Made by a program: the position numbers and the translations under genes
Shown: positions 36,785-41,672 of the stretch, piece by piece
How positions within the stretch are numbered: position 1 is the stretch's first letter
Layout: the number at the start of each line of letters is the position of its first letter
The notes under the pieces: generated by a model
The model's database searches: none
The model's input: the letters and a program-made list of their open reading frames with translations, nothing else
What the model was told of the DNA's origin: nothing
DNA from: Rubrobacter xylanophilus
GTDB lineage: Bacteria > Actinomycetota > Rubrobacteria > Rubrobacterales > Rubrobacteraceae
Length of the DNA stretch: 64,000 nt
Direction of reading: 5' to 3'
Assembly (NCBI RefSeq): GCF_007164525.1
Contig: NZ_AP019791.1
Span: 917,501-981,500 of the forward strand

Positions 36785-38263
36785 CTAGCCGCGGACCCGC
36801 TGCAGCTGCCGCAGGAACTCCGCGTTGGTGCGGGTCTCCTTCAGCTTCTGGATGAGCAGCTCTATCTTCGCCGCCGTGTCCAGGGCGTTCAGGATGTTGC
36901 GCACCTGCCAGACCCTCTGGGCCTCGGCCGGCTCCATCAGCAGCTCCTCCTTGCGGGTACCGGAGTCCTCGATGTTGATGGCCGGGTAGATCCGGCGGTT
37001 CGCCAGCTTGCGGTCCAGGTGGATCTCCATGTTGCCCGTGCCCTTGAACTCCTCGTAGATCACCTCGTCCATCCGGCTGCCGGTGTCGATGAGCGCGCTG
37101 GCCAGGATGGTGAGCGACCCGCCGTTCTCGATGTTCCTCGCGGCCCCGAAGAACTTCTTGGGCGGGTAGAGGGCGGCCGAGTCGACACCGCCGGAGAGAA
37201 TGCGACCCGAGGCCGGCGCCGCCAGGTTGTAGGCCCGGGCCAGCCGGGTGATGGAGTCGAGGAGTACCACCACGTCCTCCCCCTCCTCGACCAGCCGCTT
37301 GACCCGCTCCAGCACCAGCTCGGCCACCGCGATGTGGTTCTCGGCGGGCTGATCGAAGGTGGAGGCGACCACCTCCGCCTCCCTAACGCTGCGCTCCCAG
37401 TCGGTGACCTCCTCCGGCCGCTCGTCGGCCAGGAGAACGAACAGGCGCACCTCCGGGTAGTTGGCCGCGATGGACTGGGCGATCTGCTTGAGGATGGTGG
37501 TCTTGCCCGCCTTGGGCGGGGAGACGATGAGCCCGCGCTGGCCCTTGCCGATGGGCGCCACCAGGTCTATGACCCGCGGGGCGATGTCGTTGGGCTTCCA
37601 CTCCAGCCTGAGCCGCTCCATCGGGTAGAGCGGCGTCAGGTCGTCGAAGTTCGGCCGCCACCGGCCCTTCTGGGCCTCCCGGCCGTTGATGGTCTCTATC
37701 CGGACCATCGCCGGGTACTTCTCCCCGTTGCGGGCCGGCCGGATCTGCCCGACGATGTAGTCGCCGCGCCGGAGGTTGAAGCGCTTTATCTGGCTGGTGG
37801 AGATGTAGACGTCGTTCTTGCTCTGGCTGTACCCGCTGGTCCGCAGAAACCCGAAGCCGTCGGGCAGGACGTCGAGCACACCGCTCTGGACGAGCGACTC
37901 GTCCCTCTCCCTGCCCTCCTGCTCGGCAGGAGGCTGCTCGCGCCGCTGCCGCTCCTGACGCCGCCTCTCGACCTCCTCGGGCCGCTCCACAACGGCCGTG
38001 TCCGCCTCGCCGAAGGCGTCGGTCGGCGCCTGGGACTCGGGCACGGCCTGCTCCGCACCGCCGTTCGCGGCAGGGGCCTCGGCACGGCCTGGATTCTCCT
38101 CGCCGGAGCGCTGCTGCTCGGCGGCCTGCTGGGTGGCGACCTTGTAGATGAGCTCGGCCAGCTCGGCCTTGCGGTACTTGCGGTACTGCTCTATGCCGAG
38201 CTGGGAGGCGATCTGGTGCAGATCGCTGAGCCTCTTCCGTTCCAGGGTAGCCAGTTCGGTCAT
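36785..38263 (-). CDS. rho: Transcription termination factor Rho
   Basis: 492 residues. Hexameric RNA helicase. An N-terminal helical domain ([23 protein letters not shown]) is followed by a low-complexity Glu/Arg/Gln/Ala insertion at about residues 48-120, then the RNA-binding cold-shock-like part ([18 protein letters not shown]), Walker [12 protein letters not shown] and [13 protein letters not shown]. Such acidic/basic insertions are typical of high-GC actinobacterial Rho. Start ATG 38263 with a good ribosome site. Confidence 0.97.
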
Positions 38264-38344: not shown

Positions 38345-39349
38345 TCAACGCTGGAATCCTTGCAGACCCGCATCGGGTTCGAGGGCGTGGATGGTGTCTA
38401 TAAATCTTATCATACGGGGCCGGGTGGACATGACTACGGTGTGGGTCCGCCCCCCGCCCCTGAAATACCGCACCCCCTCGAGGGTCTCCCCGGAGGTGAG
38501 CCCGGTGGCCGCGAACACGACGTCCTCTCCGCGGATGAGGTCGTCGGTGGTGAGCTTGCGCTCCGGATCCCCGAGCCCGTACTCCCGCAGCCGCTGGACC
38601 TGTGCCCGGTTCACCGGCCACATCCGGGCCTGTATCTCTCCCCCAAGACACTTCACGACGGCGGCGGCGAGAACCCCCTCCGGGGCACCGCCGATGCCGA
38701 TCACGGCGTGCACGTCGGAGTCCCTGAGACCCACGGCTATGGAGGGGGTGAGGTCGCCCTCGGGGCGCATGTGGATCCTGGCGCCGGTGCGCCGGATCTC
38801 CTCGATCAGCTCCCGGTGCCGGTCGCGGTCGAGCACGACGACGGTTATCTCGGACGCCCTGCGGCCGAGCGCGGCGGCTATGGCCTCCACGTTCTCCGCC
38901 GCCGGCGCGTCGATGTCTATGTGGCCCCGGGCTCGCGGACCGACGATGAGCTTGCTCATGTACATGTCCGGCATCCTGAGCATTGTCCCCTCGGGGGCGG
39001 CGGCCACGGCGGAGATGGCCCCCTGCTGCCCCTTGACGAGCAGCGAGAGCCCCTCCACGGGCTCGACCGCGAGATCCACCCGAGCCTCGCCGTTCCCGAC
39101 CACGTCCCCGGGCCGCAGCAAACCGGAGCCGTCCTCGCTCCTGAGCGGCCGGGTCCGCCCCCGCTCGTCCATGTGCCGCTCGCGCAGCAGGGCCACCCGC
39201 CCGGCGACCGGCATCCCGGACAGCTCCTCCCGGAAGGTCTCGGTAGCCAGGGTGTAGGCCCTCGCCGCGTTCCCCGACCCCTCCAGCCGGGCGACGCGCA
39301 GCGCCACCCGCTCGGTCACCGCAGCGTACTCGAGGGCCCGGGATCCCAC
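38345..39349 (-). CDS. GlpX-family protein (class II fructose-1,6-bisphosphatase fold) with degenerate metal site
   Basis: 334 residues, GTG start. Fold markers are clear: LEYAAVTERVAL, MYMSKLIVGPRARGHIDI, GIGGAPEGVLAAAVVKCLGG and VVFAATGLTSGETLEG. By position and sequence it is GlpX, next to rho as in Bacillus. By my manual alignment, however, E. coli metal-site Asp33 corresponds to Arg30, Glu57 (GEGE motif) to Arg56 within LLRERH, and Asp85 (VDPIEG) to Glu96 (VEPVEG); only Glu88 (Glu99) and the later GGAPEG glutamate remain. FBPase activity is therefore doubtful. It may act on another substrate, bind without catalysis, or be a regulator. Confidence 0.85.
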   Translation of the reverse strand: MGSRALEYAAVTERVALRVARLEGSGNAARAYTLATETFREELSGMPVAGRVALLRERHMDERGRTRPLRSEDGSGLLRPGDVVGNGEARVDLAVEPVEGLSLLVKGQQGAISAVAAAPEGTMLRMPDMYMSKLIVGPRARGHIDIDAPAAENVEAIAAALGRRASEITVVVLDRDRHRELIEEIRRTGARIHMRPEGDLTPSIAVGLRDSDVHAVIGIGGAPEGVLAAAVVKCLGGEIQARMWPVNRAQVQRLREYGLGDPERKLTTDDLIRGEDVVFAATGLTSGETLEGVRYFRGGGRTHTVVMSTRPRMIRFIDTIHALEPDAGLQGFQR

Positions 39350-39401: not shown

Positions 39402-39495
39402 CCCTGCAAGTGCCCGCAGGTCATATGCGGTTTGCCAGCAGGGCTTTAGCCGGAATAAAAGCGGATCAGCATCGTTCGGACTGCGGAGGATTATA
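39402..39495 (-). promoter_or_regulatory. Promoter plus candidate structured 5' leader of the glpX-like gene
   Basis: On the minus strand a perfect TATAAT (39495-39490) overlaps the stop of the upstream gene; its -35 (TGGTCC) is weak. The predicted transcript has a leader of about 134 bases. It can form a hairpin GCTTT/AAAGC (39462-39443) and then a helix CCCTGC/GCAGGG (39443-39438 with 39407-39402) that encloses an inner helix CCGCA/TGCGG (39430-39426 with 39418-39414). Asymmetric internal-loop sequences TGGCAAA and GCACTT lie between the two helices. This is riboswitch-like, but I cannot match it to a known class. Confidence 0.4.
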
Positions 39496-40831
39496 CACCA
39501 CGGCCCCCGACGGGACCACCGTCGGTCTCCCGCAGAGCTTCCCGGGCCAGCTTCAGCAGGGCTTCGTCCAGCCCCCCGGCGACGGGGTCGTTGTCGCAGT
39601 AGACGATCCGCCGCCCCTCCGCAGCTCCTCGCCGGGTCACGACGTCCACGGCGGCGGCCTTTATCTCGGTGAGATAGGCGTCGACCTCGGGCATCCCCTC
39701 GAGATCCTCCGCGAGCCTCTTGCGGTCGGAGAGGTTTCCCGAAGCGGCGACGACCTCGCATCCGGAGCTCTCCTCCAGGTACCCCGCGAGCCGCTCCAGC
39801 ACCACGGCGGGGGCGGTGGAGACGTAGGCCACCCGCAGACCCCGCACGTCTTCCGCGGGCCGCGGCCGGAAGACGGCCGGGATCACGGGGAGTTCCGGCC
39901 GGACCTCCTCTACCCGCCGCAGGATCTCTTCCACCCTCCCAGGCGTGGCCATCGGCTCCTCGGCCATCGTCAGGACCAGAAGGTCGGAGATCAGGAGCCT
40001 ATAGGCACCGAGAAAGCCCGCCACGTATTCCGGATCCTGATGCGCTCCGGCTACCAGGACCCGCCGGTCCACGGCGACCGGCGGGACCGCCGCCCCCGAG
40101 CCGTCGAAGATCGTGATCCCGGCGTCGAGACCGGCGGCGATCCTGGCCCCCTCCAGAACGTTGGAGACGAAGGGCTTCCCGGCGAGCCCCCCACCGCACC
40201 GGCGGCACCCCACCGTGGTGACCCGGCTGAGGGCGGCCGTCTCGTAGTAGTCGCTCGCCGCGTGTCCCCCCCGCTCGAGCGCCCGGAGCAGGTAGTCGCT
40301 GCCCACCTCCAGCCGGTCTCCCTCCAGCACCTCCGGCTCCGGCGGCCCTCCGCGCCCCATGGAGACCACCGCGGGCCGGAAACCCTCCCGGTCAAGAAGC
40401 CGGGCCAGATAACCGGTGACGGCGGTCTTCCCCACCCGCTTGCCCGTGCCGATCACGGCGAGGGAGGGTTTTCCGGGCACCCGGTGCACCTCGGGCGGGC
40501 GCAGCTCGAAGTCGCTGCCGACGTAGCGGGCGCCGGCGGCGAGCGCGAGCGAGGCGATCCGCATCCTCTCCCGGTAGCCCACGACCGGCTCGTCGGAGAG
40601 GTCCACGACCGCCTCCACCCGGTACCGTCTCAAGGCCTCGCGCACCGCCGCGACGGGATCCTCCGCCGCGACGAGCGGCAGCCCGTAGTCCGTGCCCTCC
40701 CCGATCTTCTCCGTACCGCCGAGAAAGGCCGCCGCCACCCCCCGGGCGCCGAGTTCCTCCTCCACCCGGCGCATCGCGTCCAGCACCACCGGCGGGTAGT
40801 GCTCGCCGTCTATCAGGAAGAGCGCGCGCAA
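39491..40831 (-). CDS. Cyclic 2,3-diphosphoglycerate synthase homologue
   Basis: 446 residues, TTG start 40831 without a clear ribosome site; it begins 16 bases after the metallophosphoesterase stop on the same strand only if read from upstream, so coupling is uncertain. ALFLIDGEHYPPV at the N-terminus and the P-loop VIGTGKRVGKTAVTGYLARLL near residue 125 match cDPG synthases, which close 2,3-bisphosphoglycerate to the cyclic form at the expense of ATP. A Cys pair (VGCRRCGGG) near residue 205 may bind metal. cDPG is known as a thermoprotectant in methanogenic archaea; its presence in this bacterium is inference. Confidence 0.7.
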   Translation of the reverse strand: MRALFLIDGEHYPPVVLDAMRRVEEELGARGVAAAFLGGTEKIGEGTDYGLPLVAAEDPVAAVREALRRYRVEAVVDLSDEPVVGYRERMRIASLALAAGARYVGSDFELRPPEVHRVPGKPSLAVIGTGKRVGKTAVTGYLARLLDREGFRPAVVSMGRGGPPEPEVLEGDRLEVGSDYLLRALERGGHAASDYYETAALSRVTTVGCRRCGGGLAGKPFVSNVLEGARIAAGLDAGITIFDGSGAAVPPVAVDRRVLVAGAHQDPEYVAGFLGAYRLLISDLLVLTMAEEPMATPGRVEEILRRVEEVRPELPVIPAVFRPRPAEDVRGLRVAYVSTAPAVVLERLAGYLEESSGCEVVAASGNLSDRKRLAEDLEGMPEVDAYLTEIKAAAVDVVTRRGAAEGRRIVYCDNDPVAGGLDEALLKLAREALRETDGGPVGGRGV

Positions 40832-40847
40832 GGGTTCGAAAACGGGG

Positions 40848-41672
40848 TCAGGTGATCAGGCGCCGCTGCCGGCGGTCGCCGGGGCGACCGTCGCCCTGGA
40901 TCTCCTCGTAGTGGTGGTACTCGTGGGTCTCGGCGTTGAAGTCCACCACCAGCTCCCGCTCCCGGAAAGGATACTTCCGGAACACCCGGACCCGATCGTT
41001 CTCCACCTCGATGATGTTGTAGCAGGGGCGGGTGTTGCCGCGCAGGCGGGTGGTGGAGGCGGTGCCGGCGTTGACGATGAACATGTTCTCCAAACGCCAC
41101 GAATAGGGCACGTGCTTGTGGCCGGAGAGGACCAGATCCACCTCGGTGTCGGCCAGAAGCTCCAGCACGTCCCCGGCGTCGAAGACGATGTTGCGCTCCC
41201 GACCCGTGCCCGGGATGGGGATCAGGTGGTGGTGGACCACGAAGATCTTCAGCTTGTCCCCGGCCGCGGCGAAGCTCTCGTGGATGAAACCGTAGTGCTC
41301 CCGGCCCACTCGCCCGTCGTTGAGGTCCGGCTCGGAGGAGTCGACCCCGACCATGATGGCGTCCTCGAAGTCGATGACGGAGTAGCGCTCGCCGAAGAGC
41401 CGCTCGAAGTGCACATATCCCACGTTGCGCGAGTCGTGGTTGCCGGGGATCACCATGAGGTGCTCGCACCGGAAGCGCCGGATGTACTCGGCCGCCTGCT
41501 CGTACTCCTGCCGGTAGCCGGCGTTGGTGAGATCCCCGGAGACGACGACCGCCGTGGGGTCGAGGTCGTTTATCTCCAGTATGGAGCGCTCCAGAAGGTC
41601 CGGTATGAAGTAGGGGCTCCCGCAGTGGATGTCCGAGATCTGGCAGATGGTGAGACGTGCTTCGGTGCTCAT
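40848..41672 (-). CDS. Calcineurin-like metallophosphoesterase
   Basis: 274 residues, ATG start with GGGGAGAAG. Dinuclear metal motifs in order: ISDIHCG, VVSGDLTNAG, VIPGNHDSRN, VVHHHLIP and SGHKHVPYSW. It belongs to the cytosolic phosphodiesterase branch (Icc/CpdA-like). Substrate not predictable; a cyclic nucleotide or, given the neighbour, a cyclic phosphoester are possibilities. Lies between argS and the cDPG synthase homologue. Confidence 0.88.
   Translation of the reverse strand: MSTEARLTICQISDIHCGSPYFIPDLLERSILEINDLDPTAVVVSGDLTNAGYRQEYEQAAEYIRRFRCEHLMVIPGNHDSRNVGYVHFERLFGERYSVIDFEDAIMVGVDSSEPDLNDGRVGREHYGFIHESFAAAGDKLKIFVVHHHLIPIPGTGRERNIVFDAGDVLELLADTEVDLVLSGHKHVPYSWRLENMFIVNAGTASTTRLRGNTRPCYNIIEVENDRVRVFRKYPFRERELVVDFNAETHEYHHYEEIQGDGRPGDRRQRRLIT

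What the first reader, a model, noticed from the sequence alone, without database searches (positions are those of the whole stretch)
38345..39349. GlpX at its ancestral locus but with its metal-binding residues replaced
The GlpX fold is obvious and the gene sits next to rho as in Bacillus. By manual alignment, acidic ligands known from E. coli GlpX have changed: Asp33 to Arg30, Glu57 to Arg56, Asp85 to Glu96. Glu88 (Glu99) and the GGAPEG motif survive. Replacing acids by arginines suggests loss of Mg/Mn-dependent FBPase chemistry while the rest of the protein stays well conserved, so it may have a new substrate or a sensory role.
Basis: partly seen in the sequence, partly recalled or inferred. 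Interest (0 to 1): 0.75.

Follow-up and report, generated by a model that had tools for sequence, protein, structure and literature searches.

The report
Inactivated FBPase in a cDPG operon
This gene encodes a relative of the sugar-making enzyme fructose-1,6-bisphosphatase that has lost its catalytic residues but kept its sugar-phosphate pocket, and it sits in a conserved gene cluster for making cyclic 2,3-diphosphoglycerate, a compound so far reported only from heat-loving methanogens, so it is probably a sensor or a repurposed protein rather than the annotated enzyme.

Summary
The gene (38345-39349, minus strand) is real and is the only GlpX in a complete Rubrobacter-type genome. Asp33 to Arg30 was a misalignment. 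The sugar-phosphate pocket (Arg175, Arg177, EGD197-199, GGAPEG) is kept under purifying selection (dN/dS 0.14-0.24). All Rubrobacterales cluster copies examined share this; four genomes have lost the gene cleanly. The copies belong to a wider actinobacterial clade with eroded sites, always found in a cluster of metallophosphoesterase, cyclic 2,3-diphosphoglycerate synthetase (cDPGS), 2-phosphoglycerate kinase (elsewhere in this genome), this protein and usually rho. Outside Rubrobacterales, 16 of 16 members carry a CxC + CxxC motif absent from 32 canonical GlpX. The genome has no class I, III or V FBPase; its single PFK has the pyrophosphate-type GGDD/PKT motif, so FBPase may be dispensable. 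Most likely this is a ligand-binding pseudo-FBPase regulating cDPG or phosphoglycerate metabolism; a repurposed enzyme is the main rival. No activity or binding was measured.

The parts
38345..39349 (-). Pseudo-FBPase (GlpX-like, 334 aa, GTG start)
   Evidence: PF03320 347 bits; below the TIGR00330 equivalog cut-off, 247.7 vs 259.3; AF2 pLDDT 90.2, pTM 0.90; Foldseek TM 0.85-0.94 to E. coli and M. tuberculosis GlpX
39254..39256 (-). Tyr32 at the position of E. coli Asp33
39182..39184 (-). Arg56 at the position of metal-ordering Glu57 (one-residue alignment ambiguity)
   Evidence: hhalign; broad MAFFT; contrary pairwise alignment
39062..39064 (-). Glu96 at the position of M1 metal ligand Asp85
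   Evidence: M1 site from PMC10289334
39053..39055 (-). Glu99, retained Glu88
39047..39049 (-). Leu101 at the position of the proposed nucleophile Thr90 (Thr89 in F. tularensis, Thr84 in M. tuberculosis)
   Evidence: invariant Leu in 28 Rubrobacterales copies (numbered L99 there); Thr to Ala abolishes activity (PMC10289334)
38819..38827 (-). Arg175-Asp-Arg177, retained 6-phosphate pocket
   Evidence: both Arg invariant across 25 operon copies
38753..38761 (-). Glu197-Gly-Asp199, modified DGD furanose-binding motif
   Evidence: Gly and Asp invariant; Asp to Glu in Rubrobacterales
38675..38692 (-). GGAPEG motif with retained Glu213 equivalent (Glu224)
39491..40831 (-). Cyclic 2,3-diphosphoglycerate synthetase (cDPGS)
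   Evidence: phmmer 1.8e-121 to PDB 8oru/8ork; in all 22 Rubrobacterales genomes of good quality
40848..41672 (-). Calcineurin-like metallophosphoesterase of the cluster
   Evidence: PF00149; present in the cluster in 24/24 Rubrobacteraceae loci and 43/54 other loci with enough upstream flank
36785..38263 (-). rho, downstream neighbour
   Evidence: TIGR00767 632 bits

Best explanation
The protein is a class II FBPase pseudoenzyme. Shown: it keeps the predicted fold and the residues of the distal sugar/6-phosphate pocket, has lost most of the M1 metal site and the nucleophile, is under purifying selection, and belongs to an actinobacterial clade confined, in every copy examined, to a cDPG gene cluster. 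Inferred: it binds fructose 1,6-bisphosphate or another bisphosphate of this node (2,3-DPG, cDPG) without hydrolysing it, with Arg56 perhaps standing in for the metal's positive charge, and uses this binding to regulate or scaffold the cDPG enzymes. Also inferred: the FBPase step is covered by reversal of the pyrophosphate-type PFK, which let the catalytic site erode.
For: Active-site table and profile alignment. Of positions at least 95% conserved in canonical GlpX, 58% on average are kept in the catalytic N half against 88% in the sugar-binding C half. dN/dS 0.14-0.24, like neighbouring cDPGS. Intact predicted fold. One clade with 96/92 support on full length. Same-strand cDPGS-GlpX-rho in 29/29 Rubrobacterales loci; MPE-cDPGS-2PGK-GlpX-rho, or the same without MPE, in 10 other actinobacteria; f43 members keep the cDPG genes without rho. 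Erosion is graded: L151 retains Asp33, Glu57, Asp85 and Thr90, others retain few or none. f43 genomes carry a normal GlpX as well. No class I, III or V FBPase; the single PFK has GGDDT/PKTIDND, and GGDD is the PPi signature described in PMC12203962.
Against: No binding or activity data. Three or four carboxylates of the superfamily site survive (Glu96, Glu99, Glu224 and possibly Glu57), so some metal binding is possible. At least four Rubrobacterales genomes lack the gene but keep cDPGS, so it is not essential to that pathway. The clade is only weakly supported when the N half is left out (73/67). Three inositol-phosphatase-family proteins, any of which might act as an FBPase, were not examined; PfkB-type PFKs were not searched.
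Confidence: 0.5

Rival explanations
1. Repurposed enzyme: still a phosphatase or phosphoryl-transfer enzyme, using Glu96, Glu99 and Glu224 and a different nucleophile, acting on 2,3-DPG, cDPG or another cluster metabolite.
For: Cluster with cDPGS and 2PGK; conserved carboxylates and distal pocket; purifying selection.
Against: The nucleophile and metal residues are replaced differently in each sublineage, which fits loss of one chemistry better than gain of a new one; f43 copies also lose Glu213 (to Gln); a metallophosphoesterase already in the cluster is a better hydrolase candidate.
Confidence: 0.25
2. Still an ordinary FBPase with an alternative site: Glu57 and Asp61 in place by a one-residue shift, Glu96 replacing Asp85.
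For: Pairwise HMMER alignments put Glu57 and Asp61 in place; no other class I, III or V FBPase found.
Against: The nucleophile position is Leu, and Thr to Ala is inactive in two homologues (PMC10289334); profile alignment gives Arg at 57; Asp33 and Lys29 are lost; the gene has been deleted in several relatives.
Confidence: 0.08
3. Decaying relic of the ancestral glpX next to rho, with no function left.
For: Clean losses in G005, G010, G031 and G037; graded erosion across the clade.
Against: dN/dS 0.14-0.24, 81% mean column identity across the order, invariant pocket, a confident fold and a gained four-cysteine motif in sister lineages.
Confidence: 0.07
4. Partner of Rho in transcription, by analogy with SuhB, an inositol-phosphatase homologue with a role in antitermination.
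For: Adjacent to rho in Rubrobacterales and Thermoleophilia-type lineages; weak Foldseek similarity to SuhB in the rrn antitermination complex (6tqn, E 0.0096, TM 0.34).
Against: f43 members are not next to rho but keep the cDPG genes; rho persists where the gene is lost; the structural similarity is only that of the wider superfamily.
Confidence: 0.05

Closest known systems
Class II fructose-1,6-bisphosphatase (GlpX; E. coli 3d1r, M. tuberculosis 7txb, F. tularensis 7txg)
   Same: Fold, Pfam family, 6-phosphate Arg-x-Arg pocket, GGAPEG motif
   Different: Asp33, Asp85 and the nucleophile Thr90 replaced, Glu57 probably replaced, DGD changed to EGD, insertion after the GEGE region, cDPG gene cluster
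Cyanobacterial FBP/SBPase class 2 (3roj, 5a5l)
   Same: Best sequence and structure hits
   Different: Described as dual-function enzymes, with intact GEGE and DPxEGT motifs in the aligned sequences
cDPG pathway of Methanothermus fervidus (2PGK and cDPGS)
   Same: Close cDPGS homologue next door and a 2PGK elsewhere in the genome
   Different: cDPG is not reported from bacteria in the papers read; extra conserved cluster genes (metallophosphoesterase, pseudo-FBPase)
SuhB
   Same: Inositol-phosphatase superfamily member with a non-catalytic role (own knowledge)
   Different: Only distant structural similarity; no evidence here for a role in transcription

Membership tests
Class II FBPase (GlpX) | PF03320 homology over full length | tested here: met
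   347.5 bits, positions 4-307 of 307
Class II FBPase (GlpX) | GlpX fold | tested here: met
   pLDDT 90.2; TM about 0.9 to 3bih/2r8t/7txb
Class II FBPase (GlpX) | TIGR00330 equivalog score | tested here: not met
   247.7 vs 259.3; some degenerate relatives pass
Class II FBPase (GlpX) | M1 metal site: Asp of DPxEGT plus Glu57 | tested here: not met
   Asp to Glu96; Glu57 to Arg56 by profile alignment, one-residue ambiguity
Class II FBPase (GlpX) | Thr/Ser nucleophile | tested here: not met
   Leu101; invariant Leu in Rubrobacterales
Class II FBPase (GlpX) | Arg/Lys-x-Arg 6-phosphate pocket | tested here: met
   Arg175 and Arg177 invariant
Class II FBPase (GlpX) | Strictly conserved IxDGD motif | tested here: not met
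   PEGD; DGD kept in most non-Rubrobacterales relatives
Class II FBPase (GlpX) | FBPase activity | not testable with these tools
   needs purified protein
cDPG gene cluster | Adjacent cDPGS on the same strand | tested here: met
   window 39491-40831; 29/29 Rubrobacterales loci
cDPG gene cluster | Adjacent 2-phosphoglycerate kinase | tested here: not met
   In this genome 2PGK lies at C1:54336-55238, far from the window; adjacent in the other actinobacterial lineages
Pseudoenzyme clade with four cysteines | CxC near the N-terminus and CxxC near the C-terminus | tested here: not met
   0/23 Rubrobacterales, 16/16 other operon copies, 0/32 canonical

The most novel reading that the evidence does not exclude
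A previously undescribed family of FBPase pseudoenzymes senses F1,6BP or phosphoglycerate bisphosphates and controls a bacterial cDPG pathway; sister lineages added a four-cysteine metal, Fe-S or redox site. The Rubrobacter host would then run both glycolysis and gluconeogenesis through a pyrophosphate-dependent PFK with no working FBPase, an arrangement that PMC12203962 says remains to be determined for any organism.
Probability: 0.3. Interest if true: 0.85.

Novelty: new variant of a known kind. Interest (0 to 1): 0.7.

Why it matters
If true, database entries calling these proteins FBPases are wrong: several degenerate members pass the NCBI equivalog cut-off. It would show a sugar-phosphatase turned into a sensor or scaffold, extend the cDPG pathway from methanogens to bacteria, and supply a concrete organism for the open question whether a PPi-dependent PFK can serve as the main enzyme of both glycolysis and gluconeogenesis.

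Tried and rejected
Second FBPase: classes I, III and V searched, none found in the Rubrobacterales genomes searched. Random decay: rejected by dN/dS and pocket conservation. Rubrobacter-only oddity: rejected, the clade is wider. Rho partnership: disfavoured by f43 loci and by losses that keep rho. Strict dependence of cDPGS on this protein: rejected, cDPGS persists without it. The first cDPGS alignment (A2) contained one wrong-strand row and was discarded for A3. Literature searches found no paper on a GlpX pseudoenzyme or on bacterial cDPG, within an open-access library only.

Full report
Observation. The ORF at 38345-39349 (minus) encodes 334 aa and matches Pfam FBPase_glpX with 347 bits, but falls below the NCBI equivalog cut-off for glpX (247.7 vs 259.3). 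It is the only GlpX in the complete 3.02 Mb genome. Alignment with E. coli GlpX and a profile-profile comparison with 18 canonical GlpX give: Lys29 to Ala28, Asp33 to Tyr32, Glu57 to Arg56, Asp85 to Glu96, Glu88 = Glu99, Thr90 to Leu101, DGD to EGD, Glu213 = Glu224. For Glu57, pairwise HMMER alignments shift by one residue and keep Glu; lineages related to this one also show Arg or Lys at that column, which favours Arg, but superposition was not possible.

What the lost residues do. In class II FBPases the DPxEGT aspartate holds the single high-affinity metal, Glu57 orders it, and the threonine after it is the proposed nucleophile; Thr to Ala is completely inactive in the F. tularensis and M. 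tuberculosis enzymes, while Arg-x-Arg and IxDGD bind the 6-phosphate and the furanose hydroxyls (PMC10289334). The window protein therefore lacks the nucleophile and most of the metal site, but keeps the 6-phosphate pocket (Arg175, Arg177) and most of the sugar site. The model is confident (pLDDT 90.2, pTM 0.90) and matches GlpX structures at TM about 0.9.

Conservation in the order. Of 40 Rubrobacterales genomes, 35 have a GlpX match; all 29 copies read in full other than G005's share the degenerate site, and G011 and G012 do too. G005 instead carries a canonical-looking copy on another contig. G010, G037, G005 and G031 have cDPGS and rho side by side with only about 250-420 bp between them, so the gene is missing there. 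Where present it is under purifying selection: dN/dS 0.14-0.24, similar to neighbouring cDPGS.

Neighbourhood. The upstream gene is a cyclic 2,3-diphosphoglycerate synthetase (1.8e-121 to the M. fervidus structure), preceded by a calcineurin-like metallophosphoesterase. A 2-phosphoglycerate kinase above the curated cut-off lies elsewhere in the genome (C1:54336). A phylum search and gene calling found degenerate GlpX in the same cluster in two other actinobacterial families, f27 and f43, with 2PGK between cDPGS and GlpX. A scan of named genomes with cDPGS gave these orders: MPE-cDPGS-GlpX-rho in 20 Rubrobacteraceae loci; MPE-cDPGS-2PGK-GlpX-rho in 9 and the same without MPE in 1 other actinobacterium (Thermoleophilia, Gaiellales and related metagenome bins); MPE-cDPGS-2PGK-transaldolase-rho in 23 (Coriobacteriia, Aquicultor and others). 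The slot never holds both GlpX and transaldolase. The papers read describe cDPG as found exclusively in hyperthermophilic methanogens (PMC10690619), and a study of R. xylanophilus solutes reports trehalose, mannosylglycerate and di-myo-inositol phosphate without mention of cDPG (PMC3505630).

Family. Cluster-associated GlpX form one clade (96/92) apart from canonical actinobacterial GlpX; support falls to 73/67 when only the C half is used, so a single origin is favoured, not proven. Erosion is graded: L151 keeps Asp33, Glu57, Asp85, Glu88 and Thr90; others keep some or none; f43 copies also lose Glu213, and f43 genomes hold an intact GlpX elsewhere. Of positions conserved in canonical GlpX, 58% are kept in the N half and 88% in the C half. 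All 16 non-Rubrobacterales operon copies have CxC near the N-terminus and CxxC near the C-terminus; none of 32 canonical and none of 23 Rubrobacterales copies do. In f43 the next gene is a PF01883 Fe-S assembly protein, and PHO4 phosphate transporter and DUF47 genes lie upstream.

Metabolic setting. No class I, III or V FBPase was found in the genome or in the Rubrobacterales relatives searched. Three inositol-phosphatase-family proteins remain possible FBPases. The single PFK carries GGDDT and PKTIDND; [quoted passage not shown] NCBIfam places the protein only in a mixed PFK group, so donor specificity is inferred.

Conclusion. The best reading is a pseudo-FBPase that binds but does not hydrolyse a sugar or glycerate bisphosphate and serves the cDPG cluster as regulator or scaffold (0.5). 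A repurposed enzyme (0.25), a still active FBPase (0.08), a relic (0.07) and a Rho partner (0.05) are the rivals. Predicted fold, residue losses, conservation, clade and gene order are shown; inactivity, ligand and role are inferred.

Noticed in passing
L175:10450-11481, L140:10419-11393, L088:5200-6207 and others: Operon GlpX outside Rubrobacterales carry CxC near the N-terminus and CxxC near the C-terminus (16/16), absent from canonical GlpX: a possible Zn, Fe-S or redox site.
   Followed up: partly
window 39491-41672; L096; loci L097-L176: A predicted cDPG pathway (2PGK, cDPGS, metallophosphoesterase) is widespread in deep-branching Actinobacteriota, though the papers read give cDPG as exclusive to hyperthermophilic methanogens.
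   Followed up: partly
L035 (own genome C1:1332207-1333103): The only PFK-family (PF00365) protein found has the PPi-type GGDD/PKT motif; PfkB-type enzymes were not searched.
   Followed up: partly
L122-L176, between 2PGK and rho: The slot between 2PGK and rho holds either degenerate GlpX or a TalC/FSA-type transaldolase, never both.
   Followed up: partly
L080, L081, L082, L083: Four Rubrobacterales genomes lack the gene, leaving cDPGS next to rho.
   Followed up: yes
L002 / L085 (G005:C346): G005 carries a canonical-looking GlpX on a separate contig with a very long branch; foreign or contaminant origin not resolved.
   Followed up: no
L088, L090 (f43): The f43 cluster lies beside PHO4 and DUF47 phosphate-transport genes and a PF01883 Fe-S assembly gene.
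   Followed up: no
L086, L088, L153, L158: Degenerate GlpX proteins exceed the TIGR00330 equivalog cut-off and would be annotated as active FBPases.
   Followed up: yes
window 40848-41672: The cluster's metallophosphoesterase is a candidate cDPG-hydrolysing enzyme.
   Followed up: no
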